This document shows positions 1 through 63,254 of a DNA stretch of 63,254 nucleotides, in pieces; within the stretch, counting starts at the first letter, position 1, and every line of letters starts with the position of its first letter. Under the pieces are notes generated by a model. It was not told the origin of the DNA, did no database searches, and saw only the letters and a program-made list of their open reading frames with translations. The stretch lies in the IMG/VR virus record IMGVR_UViG_3300021403_000008, positions 1 through 63,254 of that record. One strand, written 5' to 3'. Origin of the DNA: a virus. A program made the translations under genes and the position numbers.

Positions 1-593
1 CGGTCAGCGGTAGTTATCTCAGCGCCCACTCTAGCGGGCTTGTCGTTCTTTCTGGATGTTCCGGGAGCCTTCTGGCTTGTACGCTCCTGGGCGGAAAGGG
101 AATCCCGGAACCGGATACCGGAGTCTATAACTGGAGCGGAGCACTTGAAGTAGTCGAAAGGTTCAAGTCCCATTTCGGTGATAGGTACTTCCTAGAAGTC
201 CAGCCTTTCTGGGAGCTGGAGCGCTCGTGCTTTATGAATCCGGCCTGTGAGGAACTGAGCCGGATGACCGGAGTGCCGCTAGTCGTTACCCATGATATCC
301 ATTACCCGCTCCCGGAGGACGCGGAGATGCAAGCTATTCTCCACGCGGTCCATCGCGGGAAGGCGAGTATTGATGACGCGCTCCGGGAATGGAATTATGA
401 GGTAGCGATGACCTTCCCGGACGGAGACGCTATACTCGGAGAGAAGCTAATGAAGACCGGCCTTAGCCGGGAAGCCTCGTGGGAGGCTATCCTGACTACG
501 GAGCGGATAGCCGGAATGTGTAAGGTAAAGCTACCGAAGGCCGAACGTCTCCGGTACCCAATATCCCAGCAGGACCTTCAGCCGTGGAGCTAG
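1..593 (+). CDS. PHP-domain part of DNA polymerase III alpha (5'-truncated copy)
   Basis: The reading frame is open from the left edge and ends in TAG at 591-593. It is the 3' two thirds of the gene that is complete at 62294-63244, differing by scattered, mostly synonymous substitutions. It ends just before the small gene at 595. It is not a second gene but the other end of the circle. Its function is as described for the complete copy. Confidence 0.9.
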   Translation, partial: VSGSYLSAHSSGLVVLSGCSGSLLACTLLGGKGIPEPDTGVYNWSGALEVVERFKSHFGDRYFLEVQPFWELERSCFMNPACEELSRMTGVPLVVTHDIHYPLPEDAEMQAILHAVHRGKASIDDALREWNYEVAMTFPDGDAILGEKLMKTGLSREASWEAILTTERIAGMCKVKLPKAERLRYPISQQDLQPWS

Positions 594-603
594 CATGATG
601 TCA
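1..603. repeat. left copy of a 603-bp terminal direct repeat
   Basis: Bases 1-603 match 62652-63254 over their whole length without gaps, with 13 substitutions, most of them at third codon positions. Three change the protein in shared positions: Cys/Tyr, Glu/Lys and Leu/Ile. This is what a circular or terminally redundant genome gives when the contig closes on itself. The mismatches mean the two ends come from slightly different templates, such as co-occurring strains, or that the repeat is real and diverging. Confidence 0.95.
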
Positions 604-804
604 TTCGAGACTACCAAGGTCATTACCGGAGCCGAGAATACGATGACGGCCGGAGAGATAATCGCCGCTCTGGATGGCGTCGTATCGAATCACAAGCCGG
701 AATTCCGGGTCACCTGGAAAGGCCAGGTTAAGTCGGTAAAGATCGTCACGCTTACCGATGAAGCCGGAGACCATATCCGGGCCGACCGGAAGCACCTAGC
801 CTAA
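595..804 (+). CDS. small protein between the two halves of the polymerase
   Basis: A 69-residue protein I do not recognise. It starts two bases after the PHP stop codon with tandem ATG codons, and its stop overlaps the next start in an ATGG/TAATGG arrangement, so it is translationally coupled. It is mostly polar with alternating hydrophobic residues and has no membrane segment. With the next gene it separates the PHP and catalytic halves of the DnaE-type polymerase, which are one polypeptide in most relatives. A replisome role is possible only by position. Confidence 0.7.
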   Translation: MMSFETTKVITGAENTMTAGEIIAALDGVVSNHKPEFRVTWKGQVKSVKIVTLTDEAGDHIRADRKHLA

Positions 805-1028
805 TGGTAAGAGAATGCCAGATGTGTGGGCTAGAGCGGAGCGTCTGTAATCGGTACCGGCGAGATATCGCCTACGGCCGGAGCCTCGTCATCTTCCTAT
901 TCATGGAGGCCGTGTTCGGGTCCGCAATTATGTTCGCGGTAACGTCGCGAGCTTACGCCGCGCTATTCGTATTTGCCGTTGCCGCCTTTACGTCGATTGT
1001 CCTAGTAGTGAGGTCGCCATGGTCCTGA
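804..1028 (+). CDS. small membrane protein inside the split polymerase locus
   Basis: A 74-residue protein with an N-terminal CxxC pair (residues 6-9), an Arg/Tyr-rich stretch and two hydrophobic segments at about 28-47 and 50-68 that look like a membrane hairpin. It overlaps the start of the polymerase catalytic gene by 10 bases. No family recognised. A membrane protein inserted between two polymerase halves is unexpected. It could be an inserted accessory gene or could tether replication to the membrane, which is speculation. Confidence 0.65.
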   Translation: MVRECQMCGLERSVCNRYRRDIAYGRSLVIFLFMEAVFGSAIMFAVTSRAYAALFVFAVAAFTSIVLVVRSPWS

Positions 1029-3328
1029 CTCTTCCCGCGACGGCTCCTGTCCCGGATATCCCAGCCGATGACCTCCTATGGGAATGGCTCCGGTACGGAT
1101 GGAACTTCCGTGGCTATAGCTCGCGGCCGGTAGCCGAGCAGAACTGGATCATTGACCGCGTCAAGTACGAAATGAATATGATCCTTGGAAAGGAACTGGC
1201 GGACTTCTTTCTATTCACGTCGGACGCTATCCGATGGGCGAAGGACAACGACGTAGCTATCGGACCCGGACGCGGCTCCACGGCCGCTAGCCTAGTCGCC
1301 TATACCACGCGGATTACCGAGGTCAACCCTTACAAGTACCCGTCTATGATCTTTGAGCGCTTCCTCGACGTTACCCGGCATGACCCTCCCGATATCGACG
1401 TGGACTGTTCGGACGAGGAACGCCACAAGGTCTATGAATACCTCGCCTGGAAGTATGGCGCTGAATGCGTCGGCCATATCGGCAACTTCATAAAGTACCG
1501 GGCTAAGAATTCCCTGGCTGACGTAGCGCGAGTCTACAACATTCCGCCATGGGCGAAAGACATCGTTGCTAACCTCGCGATTGAACGGAGCGGTGGAGAT
1601 AGCCGGGCAGACGCGACCCTAGGCGATACCTTTGATATGTTCCCGGCCGCGCAGGAAGTCCTCCGGCAGTTCCCGGACCTCGCGAAGGCGATTCGGCTAG
1701 AGGGTAACTATCGCGGGCTCTCGGTTCACGCCTGCGGGCTTATGGTAGCGAATTCGCCGCTTACCGGAGTATGCGCTATTTACTCCAGGGAAGGCGAGCA
1801 GATACTCAGCCTCGATAAGATTGACGCAGAGTATATCGACGCGCTGAAACTCGACTTCCTAGGGCTCTCGACTATGGGCGTGATTGCCCGGTGCCTCCGG
1901 ATGGCCGGCCTGACGCTAGCCGACCTATATGCCATCCCGGATACGGACCCGTCCGCTATCGAGGTATTCACCAAGGGTGACCTAGTCGGTATCTTCCAGT
2001 TCTCCGGCCGCGCGACCCGGCTAGTGAACCGGGACGTTAAGCCGCTGGACTTCTGGCATATTGTCTGTATCAATGCGCTGAGCCGTCCGGGTCCTCTGTT
2101 CTCCGGCCAGACGGCCGAATTCATCGAGGTACGGCATGGACGTAAGCGGCCGACTTCGCTTCACCCAATCGTAGATGAGATCACCAAGGATACTTACGGG
2201 CAGATGATCTTCCAGGAGCATATCCTTCGGTGCCTCCGGGAGATAGGCGACCTACAGTGGACTAACGTCCATCACATTCGCCGGATTATCGCTAAGAAGG
2301 CCGGGCAGGCAGCCTTCCAGCAATCGTTCGATGCCTTCGCGGAGGGAGCGGATAGGCTCCACGGGATTAAGCGCGAGCTAGCCGAGCAGATATGGCTCCG
2401 TCTCGTAACGTCCGGGACCTATGCGTTCAACGTCGCTCACGCCGTCTCGTATTCGATGCTAGCATTCTGGACGGCCTGGCTCAAGGTTCACTACCCGCTA
2501 GAGTTTTACGCGGCCTCTCTTCAGAAGGCGACGGACGCAGAGGACCAGTTCCGGCTTATGCGGGATGCTCTCTCCCACGGTATTGATATCAAGCCTCCGG
2601 ACCTCCATTGCTCCACGAGGACGTGGATACCAAACCACGTCCTCTCTGATATCCCGGAGCTTCGGCGCGGAGAGCTAATTGCCGGATGGCAGCAGGTGCC
2701 GAAGATCGGCCCGAAGCTAGCCGAGCGCATCGAGCATCACCTTTCCGTCGAGCCCGCGAATCAATGGACAGACCTTACCCGGATTCCCGGTATCGGTGAG
2801 AGTACGGTCGCGAGGCTAGGAGCCTTTGTAACGGCTAAGGACCCGTTCGGGCTCTACCGGACGGAGCGACGGCTTAAGGCTGTTAGCCGCTGGCTCAAGA
2901 CCCAGAAGGCGGTACCCTATCCGACTACGAACGGCGACAAGCTATCAGCCATGGTAGTCGAGGACTCGCGTCAGACCGGAGGCAGATGGAGGCGCGGACC
3001 TCTGGTGGTTTACGCGGGAGTAGTCCGGAGAGTTGAATACAAGGACATCGTAGAGGACGAGCACTCCCGGACGGGCAAGGAATATGAAGAGATACTCAAG
3101 GAAATCAAGAGGCCGGACCTCGTAAAGCGCGCCACCCTTCATATGTACGACACGAGCGATGAGGAAGTCTATGCGAGAATCAATCGGTGGAAATTCCCTG
3201 ACCTAGTCCGTACGCTAGAGACGATCAACATTAATCACGACGTTGTGATAATACTGGGGAACCGTATAGCCGGGTTTGGGACTCCAGTCCTCGTAAACAA
3301 GATATGGGTTGTAGACCCGGAAACGTAG
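1019..3328 (+). CDS. dnaE: DNA polymerase III alpha subunit, catalytic part (DnaE-type, lacks PHP)
   Basis: A 769-residue C-family replicative polymerase lacking the N-terminal PHP domain. The palm starts with helices at about 40-80 followed by the GPGRGS motif (82-87). The catalytic aspartates are in the PDIDVD motif (D125, D127) and in KLDFLGL (D279), so the active site is complete. The fingers follow. A helix-hairpin-helix segment with PGIG lies near residue 590, then a C-terminal OB-like region. The start overlaps the preceding membrane-protein gene. The PHP half is made separately from 62294-63244, and the split falls at the natural PHP/palm boundary. No exonuclease domain is present; a DnaQ-like protein is encoded at 34997-35638. 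Confidence 0.95.
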   Translation: MVLTLPATAPVPDIPADDLLWEWLRYGWNFRGYSSRPVAEQNWIIDRVKYEMNMILGKELADFFLFTSDAIRWAKDNDVAIGPGRGSTAASLVAYTTRITEVNPYKYPSMIFERFLDVTRHDPPDIDVDCSDEERHKVYEYLAWKYGAECVGHIGNFIKYRAKNSLADVARVYNIPPWAKDIVANLAIERSGGDSRADATLGDTFDMFPAAQEVLRQFPDLAKAIRLEGNYRGLSVHACGLMVANSPLTGVCAIYSREGEQILSLDKIDAEYIDALKLDFLGLSTMGVIARCLRMAGLTLADLYAIPDTDPSAIEVFTKGDLVGIFQFSGRATRLVNRDVKPLDFWHIVCINALSRPGPLFSGQTAEFIEVRHGRKRPTSLHPIVDEITKDTYGQMIFQEHILRCLREIGDLQWTNVHHIRRIIAKKAGQAAFQQSFDAFAEGADRLHGIKRELAEQIWLRLVTSGTYAFNVAHAVSYSMLAFWTAWLKVHYPLEFYAASLQKATDAEDQFRLMRDALSHGIDIKPPDLHCSTRTWIPNHVLSDIPELRRGELIAGWQQVPKIGPKLAERIEHHLSVEPANQWTDLTRIPGIGESTVARLGAFVTAKDPFGLYRTERRLKAVSRWLKTQKAVPYPTTNGDKLSAMVVEDSRQTGGRWRRGPLVVYAGVVRRVEYKDIVEDEHSRTGKEYEEILKEIKRPDLVKRATLHMYDTSDEEVYARINRWKFPDLVRTLETININHDVVIILGNRIAGFGTPVLVNKIWVVDPET

Positions 3329-4287: not shown

Positions 4288-4759
4288 CCGCCGCATACGC
4301 GGAGATTAGCACGGCTCCCGGCCGCATCGCGAGCATAACGGAATGCTCCCATGCGGCTTCCACCTCATCGTCCTTAAACGGCCGGGAGAGATAGACGATA
4401 TCGAATTTGTCCCAGGGAGGGACTTCTGTCCGAAGGTCGCATTTCTCAGCACGGACTCCGAGCGCTCGCGACTGCTCTAGGTACTCGTCCGATATCTCAT
4501 AGCCCATCTCTTCCATGAGATAGTACTTCCGGGCTAGATAGAGCTTGGTTCCTATTCCGGACCCGGCCTCGCCGTACCGGAGACGGCTATTGTCCGGGCT
4601 CATAGCCCAGGCCCGCGCGACGTGGAGCATCCGGTCAAACTCTAGAAGCTCCAGCGGGCTCCAGCGCCACAGGTCCGGGTCCGGAGCGGAACCAGACTCC
4701 TGGACTAGAGCGGCTAGCTCCATATGCCAGAGAGCCTCGATGGTTAGAAGGTCCGCCAC
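4106..4759 (-). CDS. class I SAM-dependent methyltransferase-like protein
   Basis: A 217-residue protein starting GTG, which overlaps the TAG of the preceding gene. A Rossmann-type motif I (YGEAGSGIGTK, about 62-72) is followed by an acidic strand end (YEIS) and FDIVYLSRPF as a motif IV candidate. The fold resembles small-molecule or protein methyltransferases. No NPPY or DPPY motif of DNA amino-methyltransferases and no PC motif of cytosine-C5 enzymes is visible. It is the last gene of the leftward lysis operon. Substrate unknown. Confidence 0.7.
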   Translation of the reverse strand: MADLLTIEALWHMELAALVQESGSAPDPDLWRWSPLELLEFDRMLHVARAWAMSPDNSRLRYGEAGSGIGTKLYLARKYYLMEEMGYEISDEYLEQSRALGVRAEKCDLRTEVPPWDKFDIVYLSRPFKDDEVEAAWEHSVMLAMRPGAVLISAYAAVKPYSWACRYRRPFRGVWVKPDTDIPDQETPRAQAGDYRQMIQRSATHPDPLVPEPGPRL

Positions 4760-36977: not shown

Positions 36978-37724
36978 ATGAGTAACCACATTCAGCACCA
37001 GACCCAGGGCCTTCCCTTCCCAGAGAACCAGCCCGCTCCGGAGCCGCGAGGCGAGGCGAAGAATGACGGGCTTGCCGTCATGGCCCTGATCTTCGGCTGG
37101 ACCTTCTTTCCGGTCGGCCTGCTCTTCGGCCACATGAGCAACCACGCCGCGAAGCGAGCGAACCGCAGGCGTTCCGTCCTCGCCATCGTCGGCCTCGTGG
37201 GCGCGTACTGGTGGACGGTCGTGGTAGTCATCTTCATCGTCGCCGGTATCGCCGGAGGCGCAAGCGGGAGTCCTACGGTGGCTCCTACGGTCATCACGCC
37301 GTCCAGCGCCGCTCCGCTCGCGCCGGTCACGCCCAAGCCCGCTCCGGCCACTCCGGAGCCCGCGACGGCGACTCCGGCTCCGGCGACGGAAGCTCCGGCC
37401 GCTCCGGCAGCGCCGGTCATCTCCGCGAGCCAGGCGCAGGCTCTCGACTCCGCGAAGTCCTACCTCAGCCTGGGCACCGGCTTCAGCCGCGCCAAGCTGA
37501 TCGAGCAGCTGAAGTTTGAGAAGTTTTCGACGGCCGACGCCACATGGGCCGTGGACCACTCCGGAGCCGACTGGGACGCGCAGGCTGTCGAGTCCGCGCA
37601 GGGCTACACCAAGCTGGGTACCGGCTTCAGCCGTCAGTCGCTCATCGACCAGCTCACCAGCCCGTACGGCGAGCAGTACACGCAGGCCCAGGCGACGTAC
37701 GCGGCCGGGAAGGTCGGCCTGTAG
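36978..37724 (+). CDS. Ltp-family membrane protein, superinfection exclusion candidate
   Basis: A 248-residue protein starting after GAAAGGCGAGAA. The N-terminal part has two hydrophobic spans (about 32-51 and 66-92), a Pro/Ala/Thr-rich stalk (95-150), then two tandem Ltp helix-turn-helix repeats: ALDSAKSYLSLGTGFSRAKL (about 155 on) and SAQGYTKLGTGFSRQSLIDQL, the first followed by FEKFSTADATWAVDHSGADW. In phage TP-J34 the Ltp lipoprotein blocks DNA injection by other phages. Here it is membrane-anchored by spans rather than a lipobox. GC3-rich codons suggest strong expression. Confidence 0.85.
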   Translation: MSNHIQHQTQGLPFPENQPAPEPRGEAKNDGLAVMALIFGWTFFPVGLLFGHMSNHAAKRANRRRSVLAIVGLVGAYWWTVVVVIFIVAGIAGGASGSPTVAPTVITPSSAAPLAPVTPKPAPATPEPATATPAPATEAPAAPAAPVISASQAQALDSAKSYLSLGTGFSRAKLIEQLKFEKFSTADATWAVDHSGADWDAQAVESAQGYTKLGTGFSRQSLIDQLTSPYGEQYTQAQATYAAGKVGL

Positions 37725-49568: not shown

Positions 49569-49884
49569 CTCAGGAGGCTCGCGCCCCATGGACCCGGTCA
49601 AGTGGATGATCGCTCAGGCGGTCCAGCACCATCTCGTTACCGGGAAGGAACAGCCCGCCATTCCTCCGAAGCCAGACAACGTCGAGTCGGCCGAAGGTCA
49701 GGCCATCTCCGCGACTGAGACGCTCGTCCGGGTCATCACCACAAACCAGGGAGTACGGTACTTCCGCGTCAAGGTAAGCGAGATACTGTTATGGGTGTCG
49801 TCTATATCCCGACCATGGGACGGCCGGCCAACGTCCGGAAGATCGTGCCGAAGTGGCTGGACCAGAATATGTCCGTCCGGCTAG
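49561..49884 (+). CDS. hypothetical protein overlapping the glycosyltransferase start
   Basis: A 107-residue frame starting ATG 49561 within the previous gene. The first 75 residues (DPVKWMIAQAVQHHLVTGK) look real; the last 31 codons overlap the glycosyltransferase gene in another frame and become Arg/Ser/Gly-rich. A long overlap of 94 bases is unusual here. Confidence 0.5.
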   Translation: MPSSGGSRPMDPVKWMIAQAVQHHLVTGKEQPAIPPKPDNVESAEGQAISATETLVRVITTNQGVRYFRVKVSEILLWVSSISRPWDGRPTSGRSCRSGWTRICPSG

Positions 49885-50627
49885 TCGTGAATACGGACGA
49901 GGTCAATACTCATCTCGCCGTCCGCGCCCAGGAAGGCTGGGGCTCCGACGTACGGGTCTGGGCTCCGCCAGGAGTCCGTGGCATCGGAGCTATCCGGCGC
50001 AAGATCGTACGGCAGGCCGCGAGGAACGGCCTCAACGCCATAGTCCTTTCCGAGGACGATGCGATACCGGAGCGGAAGTCTGATTTCCACGATCTGCTCG
50101 ACTGGGCCGAACGGCCGGACGTTCTAGGCATCGGCGCGACCCGGCCAATCCACGACCGCTTCACCGGAGGCGCAATCTCCAATAACTCCGGCGCTATCCT
50201 GTGCCCCGGAGGATGGGGCTTTGTCTGCTTCGCGCTTAACGTCCCGAATGCGATCGCAGCCGGCAATTACGATGCGGCTCTCCATACGATCGGAGACGAT
50301 GCGGAGCTAGCGCGGAACGGCATCGCGAAACTCCGGATTCCGTGGCTCGCCCATTGTGACGTCCGGTGGTCCGCTATCGGTACCCGGTACTCAGCCGGAG
50401 GGATCAATGCGCGCTTCGGAGAGGACGAGGTGAAGCGCCACGCGGCCGAACGGGAGTGTATGGAGATAATCCACGAGCGGTGGCCGGCCTACACGAACCG
50501 GCCAGATCAGCGGCTCCGGGTATCCTGGCAGAAGATGCTGGACGACTACATACCCGGCTGGCGCGCCCGGAGCGCTCTCCACGGAGGCGACCTCGCGGCC
50601 GACTACCGGGAAGAGGCCACGATATGA
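49791..50627 (+). CDS. GT-A glycosyltransferase, possibly of the TET-associated (DNA-modifying) type
   Basis: A 278-residue protein. YIPTMGRPANVRKIVPKWL at the N-terminus, GVRGIGAIRRKIVRQAA, then LSEDDAIP with an EDD metal-site motif and GIGATRPIHDRFTGGAISNN and SAGGINARFGEDEV. The last segments recall the TAGT family, whose members in phages sugar-coat hydroxylated bases. No TET/JBP dioxygenase was seen here. An alternative is a protein or lipid glycosyltransferase. It ends in ATGA with the next small gene. Confidence 0.6.
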   Translation: MGVVYIPTMGRPANVRKIVPKWLDQNMSVRLVVNTDEVNTHLAVRAQEGWGSDVRVWAPPGVRGIGAIRRKIVRQAARNGLNAIVLSEDDAIPERKSDFHDLLDWAERPDVLGIGATRPIHDRFTGGAISNNSGAILCPGGWGFVCFALNVPNAIAAGNYDAALHTIGDDAELARNGIAKLRIPWLAHCDVRWSAIGTRYSAGGINARFGEDEVKRHAAERECMEIIHERWPAYTNRPDQRLRVSWQKMLDDYIPGWRARSALHGGDLAADYREEATI

Positions 50628-61827: not shown

Positions 61828-62074
61828 ATTCCCGGACGCGGCAGTATTCGCGGACGTATCGGACGAGCTAGCCGAAGCTCGTAGCAGATTCCCGGAATTC
61901 AACGGAGCCCACGAGGGATACGCGGTCATCCTGGAGGAACTGGACGAGCTGTGGGAAGAGGTCCGGTCTAAGGGACGGACGAACGCTCGCATGTACGAGG
62001 AAGCCAGGCAGGTGGCCGCTATGGCTATCCGGTTCATGCTCGACGTATGCGGAGGGAGTCCTGATGGACGGTAG
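61820..62074 (+). CDS. MazG-like nucleotide pyrophosphohydrolase
   Basis: An 84-residue protein with GGAGGAACA before its ATG. ILEELDELWEEVRSKG matches the ExxE metal-binding helix of MazG-type enzymes and EEARQVAAMAIRFMLD the second helix. It may hydrolyse (p)ppGpp or non-canonical dNTPs. Ends overlapping the next gene. Confidence 0.65.
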   Translation: MPKFPDAAVFADVSDELAEARSRFPEFNGAHEGYAVILEELDELWEEVRSKGRTNARMYEEARQVAAMAIRFMLDVCGGSPDGR

Positions 62075-62294
62075 CCGATGGATTCAGGATAAGGAAGGCC
62101 TGTGGTGGGAGCTAATGCCTGCCGGGCCTTTCCCGGAGCCGCGCGAGCTAACCCCGGAGGAACGGCTAGAAGCCGCGACTAACTACCTGAAGAACCGGCT
62201 CGCGCTCAAGATAGACAAGCTCTACGTCCAGGCCGGTCGGTTCCAGTCCTATGTCGGGACTACTCCCGATGACTTTACGGACGGCCTCCGGTAA
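62064..62294 (+). CDS. hypothetical protein before the polymerase PHP gene
   Basis: A 76-residue protein with WIQDKEGLWWELMPAGPFPE and a helical C-terminus ending FTDGLR. The last base of its TAA is the first of the PHP start codon, so the two are coupled. Function unknown. Confidence 0.6.
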   Translation: MDGSRWIQDKEGLWWELMPAGPFPEPRELTPEERLEAATNYLKNRLALKIDKLYVQAGRFQSYVGTTPDDFTDGLR

Positions 62295-63244
62295 TGGGAG
62301 AGCTAGCGCGGCGAGTCCGGTTCGTTAACCTACACGGCCATTCAACATTCTCTTTCGGAGACGGGTACGGACCTCCCTCCGCGCACGTCGCGAGAGCGGC
62401 CGGACTTGGCTATACCGCGCTAGCCCTAACCGAGCACGGTAACGTATCGAGTCACTATCAGCTAGAAGCGGCCGCAGTCAAGGCCGGCATTCAGCCTATC
62501 TTCGGCCTGGAGGCTTATACCGGAGCCGTGGACCTAGAGCACCGCCAGCAATTCAAGTTCCATCTGACTATTCTCGCGGAGACAGCGAATGGATACCAGA
62601 ACCTCAACAAAGTCGTCACCCAGTCCTATAAGGACGCATACTACCACCCTACGGTCAGCGGTAGTTATCTCAGCGCCCACTCTAGCGGGCTTGTCGTTCT
62701 TTCTGGATGTTCCGGGAGCCTTCTGGCTTGTACGCTCCTGGGCGGAAAGGGAATCCCGGAACCGGATACCGGAGTCTACAACTGGAACGGAGCGCTAGAA
62801 GTAGTCGAGAGGTTCAAGTCCCATTTCGGTGATAGGTACTTCCTAGAAGTCCAGCCTTTCTGGGAGCTGGAGCGCTCGTGCTTTATGAATCCGGCCTATG
62901 AGGAACTGAGCCGGATGACCGGAGTGCCGCTAGTCGTTACCCACGATATCCATTACCCGCTCCCGGAGGACGCAGAGATGCAAGCTATTCTCCACGCGGT
63001 CCATCGCGGGAAGGCGAGTATTGATGACGCGCTCCGGGAATGGAATTACGAGGTGGCGATGACCTTCCCGGACGGAGACGCTATACTCGGAGAGAAGCTA
63101 ATGAAGACCGGCCTTAGCCGGGAAGCCTCGTGGGAGGCTATCCTGACTACGGAGCGGATAGCCGGAATGTGTAAGGTGAAGCTACCGAAGGCCAAACGTC
63201 TCCGGTACCCAATATCCCAGCAGGACATTCAGCCGTGGAGCTAG
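62294..63244 (+). CDS. dnaE: PHP-domain half of DNA polymerase III alpha (complete)
   Basis: A 316-residue protein beginning FVNLHGHSTFSFGDGYGPP, the PHP motif with metal-binding His, then ALTEHGN and FGLEAYTG, with VVTHDIHYP further on. It corresponds to residues 1 to about 300 of DnaE and ends in TAG at the junction to the palm. The catalytic half is encoded at 1019-3328 (after circularisation), separated by about 425 bp carrying two small genes. The two proteins presumably reassemble. The PHP metal site looks intact. Confidence 0.9.
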   Translation: MGELARRVRFVNLHGHSTFSFGDGYGPPSAHVARAAGLGYTALALTEHGNVSSHYQLEAAAVKAGIQPIFGLEAYTGAVDLEHRQQFKFHLTILAETANGYQNLNKVVTQSYKDAYYHPTVSGSYLSAHSSGLVVLSGCSGSLLACTLLGGKGIPEPDTGVYNWNGALEVVERFKSHFGDRYFLEVQPFWELERSCFMNPAYEELSRMTGVPLVVTHDIHYPLPEDAEMQAILHAVHRGKASIDDALREWNYEVAMTFPDGDAILGEKLMKTGLSREASWEAILTTERIAGMCKVKLPKAKRLRYPISQQDIQPWS

Positions 63245-63254
63245 CATGATGTCA
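62652..63254. repeat. right copy of the 603-bp terminal direct repeat
   Basis: Second copy of the repeat at the left end. It covers the last two thirds of the PHP gene and the first bases of the next small gene. Joining the copies gives a circle of about 62,651 bp. Confidence 0.95.

What the first reader, a model, noticed from the sequence alone, without database searches (positions are those of the whole stretch)
62294..63254. Replicative polymerase split at the PHP/palm boundary with two genes inserted
The complete PHP protein (62294-63244) ends in a stop codon exactly where DnaE enters the palm, and the catalytic protein (1019-3328) has all three aspartates but no PHP. After circular joining, two small coupled genes, one for a membrane hairpin protein, fill the gap of about 425 bp. 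DnaE is normally one chain, so a two-part phage replicase with an inserted membrane gene is unusual. It is not an intein remnant that I can recognise: no intein motifs are seen at the break.
Basis: partly seen in the sequence, partly recalled or inferred. Interest (0 to 1): 0.75.

Follow-up and report, generated by a model that had tools for sequence, protein, structure and literature searches.

The report
Phage DNA replicase in two pieces
This soil virus makes its DNA-copying enzyme as two proteins, a probable proofreading half and a copying half, and comparison with about 80 relatives shows that the cut is real, has changed at least six times in this group, and always comes with the same short end-tag on the proofreading half.

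Summary
PHP (62294-63244, 316 aa) and catalytic DnaE (1019-3328, 769 aa) are separate genes. The break lies at the M. tuberculosis DnaE1 PHP/palm boundary, with two small coupled ORFs in the 425-bp gap. The contig ends overlap by 603 bp at 97.8% identity; both copies keep the stop, and 1-3328 already contains PHP end, stop, inserts and polymerase, so no circular join is needed. It is not an assembly artefact: 59 distinct split versus 27 fused phage polymerases were found. Every locus with enough upstream sequence keeps PHP. The split state needs at least six changes on the tree. It is therefore common in this clade, and a two-gene DnaE was noted in one sentence for Microbacterium cluster EF phages (PMC7302621).

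Best reading: an obligate two-subunit C-family replicase. PHP keeps all nine metal ligands (HHDHEHCDH), and no DnaQ-like exonuclease was detected in the window, so PHP is probably the proofreader in trans. New here: all split PHPs end in a conserved, poorly ordered tail (59/59; core motif in 0/27 fused linkers), a candidate docking peptide. The gap holds lineage-specific cargo, including homing endonucleases, a DnaQ-like exonuclease, DpdA/QueC and methyltransferases. The inserted membrane gene is an orphan, not a conserved replicase part.

The parts
62294..63244 (+). PHP half: 316-aa PHP domain protein, complete gene; metal ligands H14 H16 D23 H48 E73 H90 C139 D218 H220 (HHDHEHCDH)
   Evidence: PF02811 9.1e-32; Taq DnaE PHP alignment; ligand motif in window and relatives; AF2 pLDDT 88, Foldseek top hits DnaE PHP domains
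63206..63244 (+). C-terminal tail YPISQQDIQPWS plus stop of the PHP half; Y305, D311 and W315 conserved in split relatives; predicted poorly ordered alone
   Evidence: A1 invariant columns; 31/31 for Y305, D311, W315; 59/59 split tails vs 0/27 fused; pLDDT 57-62 at residues 301-316
1..593 (+). Second, partial copy of the PHP gene 3' end (contig-end overlap with 62652-63254, 13 mismatches), same stop
595..804 (+). Inserted ORF1, 69 aa, orphan; good codon-usage score; GGAG upstream
   Evidence: score 17.6; no relatives
804..1028 (+). Inserted ORF2, 74 aa, Cys-containing N-terminus plus two hydrophobic segments (membrane hairpin), orphan; weak codon-usage score
   Evidence: score 1.5; hydropathy; no relatives
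1019..3328 (+). Catalytic half: 769-aa palm/thumb/fingers/HhH plus C-terminal OB-like region, no PHP; palm D125, D127, D279
   Evidence: PF07733 1.4e-59, PF17657 1.6e-31, HhH; PHROG 11165; PDB alignments; A2; AF2/Foldseek to Mtb, Taq, Ec DnaE
62064..62294 (+). 76-aa gene just upstream of PHP (overlapping TAATG); its homologue in L035 lies between PHP and the catalytic half
   Evidence: 58% identity, 5e-37; position

Best explanation
A real two-subunit C-family (DnaE-type) phage replicase. Shown: the chain is cut at the PHP/palm boundary and both genes are intact, conserved and co-inherited in one coupled operon. Inferred: the two proteins re-associate through the old PHP-palm contact; the PHP half is an active zinc 3'-5' exonuclease that proofreads in trans and stabilises the polymerase, as the fused domain proofreads in M. 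tuberculosis; and its conserved C-terminal tail (Y..[DE]..(P)W-stop), which replaces the roughly 10-residue linker of fused forms, is a docking peptide for the catalytic half. Because two chains suffice, the gap tolerates insertions and has become a cargo and homing site; the two orphan ORFs in the window are cargo, not replicase parts. Confidence 0.78 is for the two-subunit replicase; about 0.65 that PHP is catalytically active in trans; about 0.45 that the tail docks on the catalytic half.
For: Both halves match DnaE over their full domains. All nine ligands of the active motif HHDHEH[C/H]DH (definition: PMC12926913) are present in the window and in every complete, uninterrupted relative. 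PHP is present in all 75 of 80 IMG/VR loci that extend far enough upstream, split or fused, and is never lost. PHP-tree and palm-tree groups agree, with distance correlation r = 0.95 in split pairs. Purifying selection within the population: pN/pS 0.13. Tail in 59/59 split, core DxxPW motif in 0/27 fused, although its predicted confidence is low (57-62) next to a body mostly around 90. No DEDDh-like motif in any window ORF of 40 aa or more, and no RNase_T hit among about two dozen other window proteins scanned. Gap contents vary. Precedent: split T4-type polymerase 43A/43B halves co-purify and are active (PMC2988022).
Against: No complex was modelled or measured; the structure tool takes one chain. 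The tail-docking idea rests on conservation alone: a possible partner site (catalytic-half W23) looked split-specific in a small set but is also present in newly found fused forms, so no covariation supports it. The phage could borrow a host DnaQ. In three lineages PHP itself is interrupted at the fourth ligand, which would need a third chain or mean loss of activity.
Confidence: 0.78

Rival explanations
1. The conserved C-terminal tail is not a docking peptide for the catalytic half but a binding motif for another replisome partner, such as the sliding clamp, replacing a clamp motif that the catalytic half may lack.
For: Short C-terminal acidic-aromatic peptide, disordered alone and very conserved; no QxxLF-like motif was seen by eye in the catalytic half after its HhH region.
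Against: It does not match the canonical clamp pentapeptide; fused relatives lack the tail yet must also replicate, so a clamp contact would have to lie elsewhere in them.
Confidence: 0.25
2. The tail is only a remnant: fission by duplication left the start of the first palm helix (AEELIWEW in fused forms) on the PHP half, and it has no function of its own.
For: Tails such as ATAEEMKW-stop and SEEDLKPW-stop resemble the fused junction TAEELIWEW.
Against: The acidic residue and the Trp stay nearly invariant over six lineages while neighbouring positions vary, unlikely without function; the resemblance is short and was not statistically tested.
Confidence: 0.25
3. Homing endonucleases created the splits by inserting into dnaE, as with mobE in Aeh1 nrdA, and most were later lost; current cargo is secondary. 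This concerns the origin of the split and is compatible with the best explanation.
For: HNH_3/NUMOD genes sit in the gap of Wollypog (L005), L110 and L018/L068; the L005 and L110 genes are homologous, and L068 is homologous to an L113 ORF, across separate split lineages. Established mechanism in T4-like phages (PMC2988022).
Against: Most split loci have no endonuclease, and some have no gap at all (Terapin group, L015, L030). An endonuclease may equally invade an already split locus, as discussed for phage 25.
Confidence: 0.4
4. Assembly or sequencing artefact.
For: The window ends fall inside this locus and overlap imperfectly.
Against: Two diverged copies share the stop; 59 distinct split relatives, including isolated phages.
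Confidence: 0.01

Closest known systems
Two-gene Pol III alpha of actinobacteriophages (Microbacterium cluster EF, Terapinvirus, Wollypogvirus, Papyrusvirus, Onyinyevirus)
   Same: PHP and catalytic parts in two neighbouring genes cut at the same boundary; Papyrus, Onyinye and Wollypog also carry one or two genes in the gap. Cluster EF is noted in one sentence in PMC7302621.
   Different: The window belongs to a soil metagenome clade with different, orphan inserts; the tail signature, number of changes and cargo variation were not described in anything I could read.
Split T4-like DNA polymerase 43A/43B (Aeromonas phages 25, 44RR) and split nrdA (Aeh1)
   Same: Essential replication enzyme cut into two cistrons with an inserted gene or spacer; halves re-associate (PMC2988022)
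   Different: B-family polymerase or ribonucleotide reductase; here a C-family enzyme cut at a domain boundary, separating a predicted nuclease domain from the polymerase
Cyanobacterial split-intein DnaE
   Same: DnaE encoded by two genes
   Different: There a trans-splicing intein rejoins the chain; here no intein sequence at either end, and a different break point (intein position from general knowledge)
M. tuberculosis DnaE1
   Same: PHP with the full nine-residue zinc site, shown to be the replicative proofreader (PMC5636811)
   Different: Single chain; the window protein has PHP in trans and a shorter C-terminal region

Membership tests
C-family DNA polymerase (DnaE type) | Pol beta-like palm with three catalytic Asp | tested here: met
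   D125, D127 and D279 invariant; PF07733, PF17657; DnaE structures top the Foldseek list
[quoted passage not shown]
   PHP is on a separate gene; present in trans
Active PHP proofreading exonuclease | Nine metal ligands HHDHEH[C/H]DH | tested here: met
Active PHP proofreading exonuclease | Measured zinc-dependent 3'-5' exonuclease activity | not testable with these tools
   needs purified protein
Two-gene DnaE of actinobacteriophages | PHP and catalytic genes split at the PHP/palm boundary, same order, same strand | tested here: met
Two-gene DnaE of actinobacteriophages | C-terminal Y..[DE]..(P)W tail on the PHP half (signature proposed here) | tested here: met
Homing-endonuclease-split gene (T4-like) | Free-standing endonuclease gene in the gap | tested here: not met
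   Window ORFs 595-804 and 804-1028 have no Pfam hit above cut-off; endonucleases occur in relatives only
Split-intein DnaE | Intein halves at the two new termini | tested here: not met
   No intein family hit in either half or the gap ORFs; PHP ends within about a dozen residues of the DnaE linker in most relatives

The most novel reading that the evidence does not exclude
In one phage polymerase clade a replicase has been cut at the same domain boundary about six separate times, each time acquiring the same C-terminal docking peptide, giving a natural detachable proofreading subunit and a standing site for cargo genes between the halves, in one lineage including a second (DnaQ-type) proofreader.
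Probability: 0.35. Interest if true: 0.7.

Novelty: new variant of a known kind. Interest (0 to 1): 0.52.

Why it matters
C-family polymerases are described as always carrying PHP in the same chain. A natural set of fused and split forms, with isolated members on M. smegmatis, Gordonia and Microbacterium lab strains, would let one test directly what PHP contributes (stability or proofreading), whether proofreading can be supplied in trans, and how split enzymes re-associate. The tail gives a specific hypothesis that can be tested by mutation. The gap is also an example of a core replication gene used as an insertion site.

Tried and rejected
Assembly artefact: rejected. Intein remnant: no intein hits. 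Single clade of split forms: rejected on palm (p-AU 1.6e-41) and PHP (p-AU 1.5e-4) trees, but with quick trees and long branches, and the group was named after the tree had been seen; the tests do not separate gains from re-fusions. Catalytic-half W23 as tail partner: dropped when fused relatives with the same W were found. Inserted membrane gene as conserved replicase part: rejected. Genome collection scan for cellular or prophage relatives: none found, so the host is unknown. My first overlap script used a wrong offset and was redone. Kazlauskas and Venclovas 2011 on viral replicases (PMC3201878), which may discuss phage PHP domains, is not in the library, so priority could not be fully checked.

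Full report
OBSERVATION. PHP matches Pfam PHP, and the other half matches DNA_pol3_alpha, the finger domain and helix-hairpin-helix. PHROG 11165, a 782-aa polymerase family, already fits the catalytic half from end to end, so PHP-less catalytic proteins are in public data. PHP aligns to Taq Pol III alpha 3-296 and the catalytic half enters M. tuberculosis DnaE1 at 304; in that enzyme PHP is 1-300 and palm starts at 301 (PMC5636811). The window ends overlap: 1-603 equals 62652-63254 with 13 differences, giving 9 synonymous and 4 amino-acid changes and the same stop (pN/pS 0.13). The stop, the two inserts and the polymerase also lie together in 1-3328, so the arrangement does not depend on joining the ends.

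RELATIVES. A first IMG/VR scan gave 32 loci. In every one that covers both genes, PHP and the catalytic half are separate, with a gap from a small overlap to about 3.1 kb. A wider scan gave 80 loci, of which 5 end before PHP could be seen; all the other 75 have PHP, split or fused. Among isolated phages, the split at this boundary is present in Gordonia Madi, Suzy, LilyPad and LittleFella (no gap), Microbacterium Crestdrop (10 nt), Arthrobacter Wollypog (two genes, one an HNH endonuclease), Mycobacterium Papyrus (one gene) and Onyinye (one gene). PHP is fused in Butterscotch, Hawkeye, Oaker, DrLupo, Dryad, Gibbin, DumpTruck, Nocardia P3.1, PotatoChip and IDyn. Microbacterium cluster EF is recorded as having two genes related to Pol III alpha that are typically one (PMC7302621).

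HISTORY. On the palm tree of 91 sequences the split/fused state needs at least six changes, all forced by well-supported branches, under two models. Holding all split forms together is rejected on the palm and PHP trees of the smaller set. The two trees recover the same small groups (Papyrus with MrMiyagi; Dryad with Wollypog and Crestdrop; the Onyinye group; the Terapin group), so the halves travel together; pairwise distances correlate at 0.95 in split pairs. These counts do not say which changes are fissions and which re-fusions.

THE TAIL. Fused forms join LPKAERLx(Y/F)P to the first palm helix (for example AEELIWEWLR) through a linker of about 10 residues in most cases, longer in a few. 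Split PHP proteins end instead in a tail such as YPISEEDLKPWT-stop. In 31 split sequences Y305, D311 and W315 are each 31/31; in 59 distinct split tails the general pattern fits 59, and no fused linker of 27 has the core DxxPW. AlphaFold gives the PHP body high confidence but the last 16 residues only 57-62. A conserved segment that is not ordered alone suggests a peptide that needs a partner. Alternatives are a clamp-binding peptide or a remnant of the palm helix. A supposed matching residue in the catalytic half (W23) did not survive wider sampling.

FUNCTION. The PHP site has all nine ligands (HHDHEHCDH), the pattern that PMC12926913 uses to call a PHP active. In M. tuberculosis the PHP domain is the replicative proofreader, and in E. 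coli, with an altered site, it stabilises the polymerase (PMC5636811). No DEDDh-type exonuclease motif was found in the window's ORFs, and no RNase_T domain in those scanned. I therefore infer a proofreading subunit in trans; activity and binding are not shown.

THE GAP. The two window ORFs are translationally coupled to both halves, and the polymerase has its own GAGG upstream. ORF1 scores as coding; ORF2 scores weakly, as membrane proteins may. Neither has relatives in IMG/VR. Other gaps contain DpdA, a Vut_1-type transporter and QueC (a likely 7-deazaguanine DNA-modification set) in L026, methyltransferases (L021, L026, L027, L035), homing endonucleases (Wollypog, L110, L018), a DnaQ-like RNase_T exonuclease (L076/L107), and small Cys-rich or single-span membrane proteins. 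The methyltransferase has relatives upstream of the polymerase genes in other phages (for example fused L100) but lies inside the gap in L035, L026 and others. A 76-aa gene just upstream of PHP in the window has its homologue inside the gap in L035. So gene order around PHP is fluid, as expected of free cistrons.

VERDICT. The finding is real and correctly located. Its claim of rarity is not upheld within this clade, and the inserted membrane gene is not a conserved part of it. What stands out is the recurrence, the conserved tail and the cargo site. Literature coverage is limited to open papers; one relevant older paper could not be read.

Noticed in passing
L087 ~845, L066/L016 ~1355, L124-L127/L030-L033 (L030:3179), L073/L022: PHP has 6-9 extra nucleotides at exactly the same point, after GAACATGG in the fourth metal-ligand motif TEHG|(N/G)VSSH, in four lineages. 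In L087 and L066 the 7 nt bring an internal ATG into frame (MDYGNVSSH, MAYGSVSSH), cutting PHP again into two coupled ORFs; L124 has an in-frame TGA; L073 stays in frame. Footprint or second fission point, unexplained.
   Followed up: partly
L040 (MrMiyagi, 4385-4388) and L044 (P1201, 6350-6378): In these two phages PHP is fused, but the polymerase is cut instead at catalytic-half residue ~295, with overlapping genes: a second fission site used in two different lineages.
   Followed up: partly
L076:2410-2946 (same in L107): A DnaQ-like exonuclease (RNase_T, FLDLETTG motif) lies between the PHP and catalytic halves, so one phage lineage may carry two proofreaders in the polymerase operon.
   Followed up: partly
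L026:875-3989: DpdA, a Vut_1-type transporter, QueC and a methyltransferase, a likely 7-deazaguanine DNA-modification cassette, sit between the two polymerase halves.
   Followed up: partly
window 49791-50627: Weak hit (below cut-off) to TET-associated glycosyltransferase, a possible DNA hypermodification gene.
   Followed up: no
window 36978-37724: Protein with two host cell surface-exposed lipoprotein (Ltp) repeats, a family linked to superinfection exclusion.
   Followed up: no
window 1-603 and 62652-63254: Imperfect contig-end overlap (97.8%), suggesting a circular map closed across two strain variants.
   Followed up: partly
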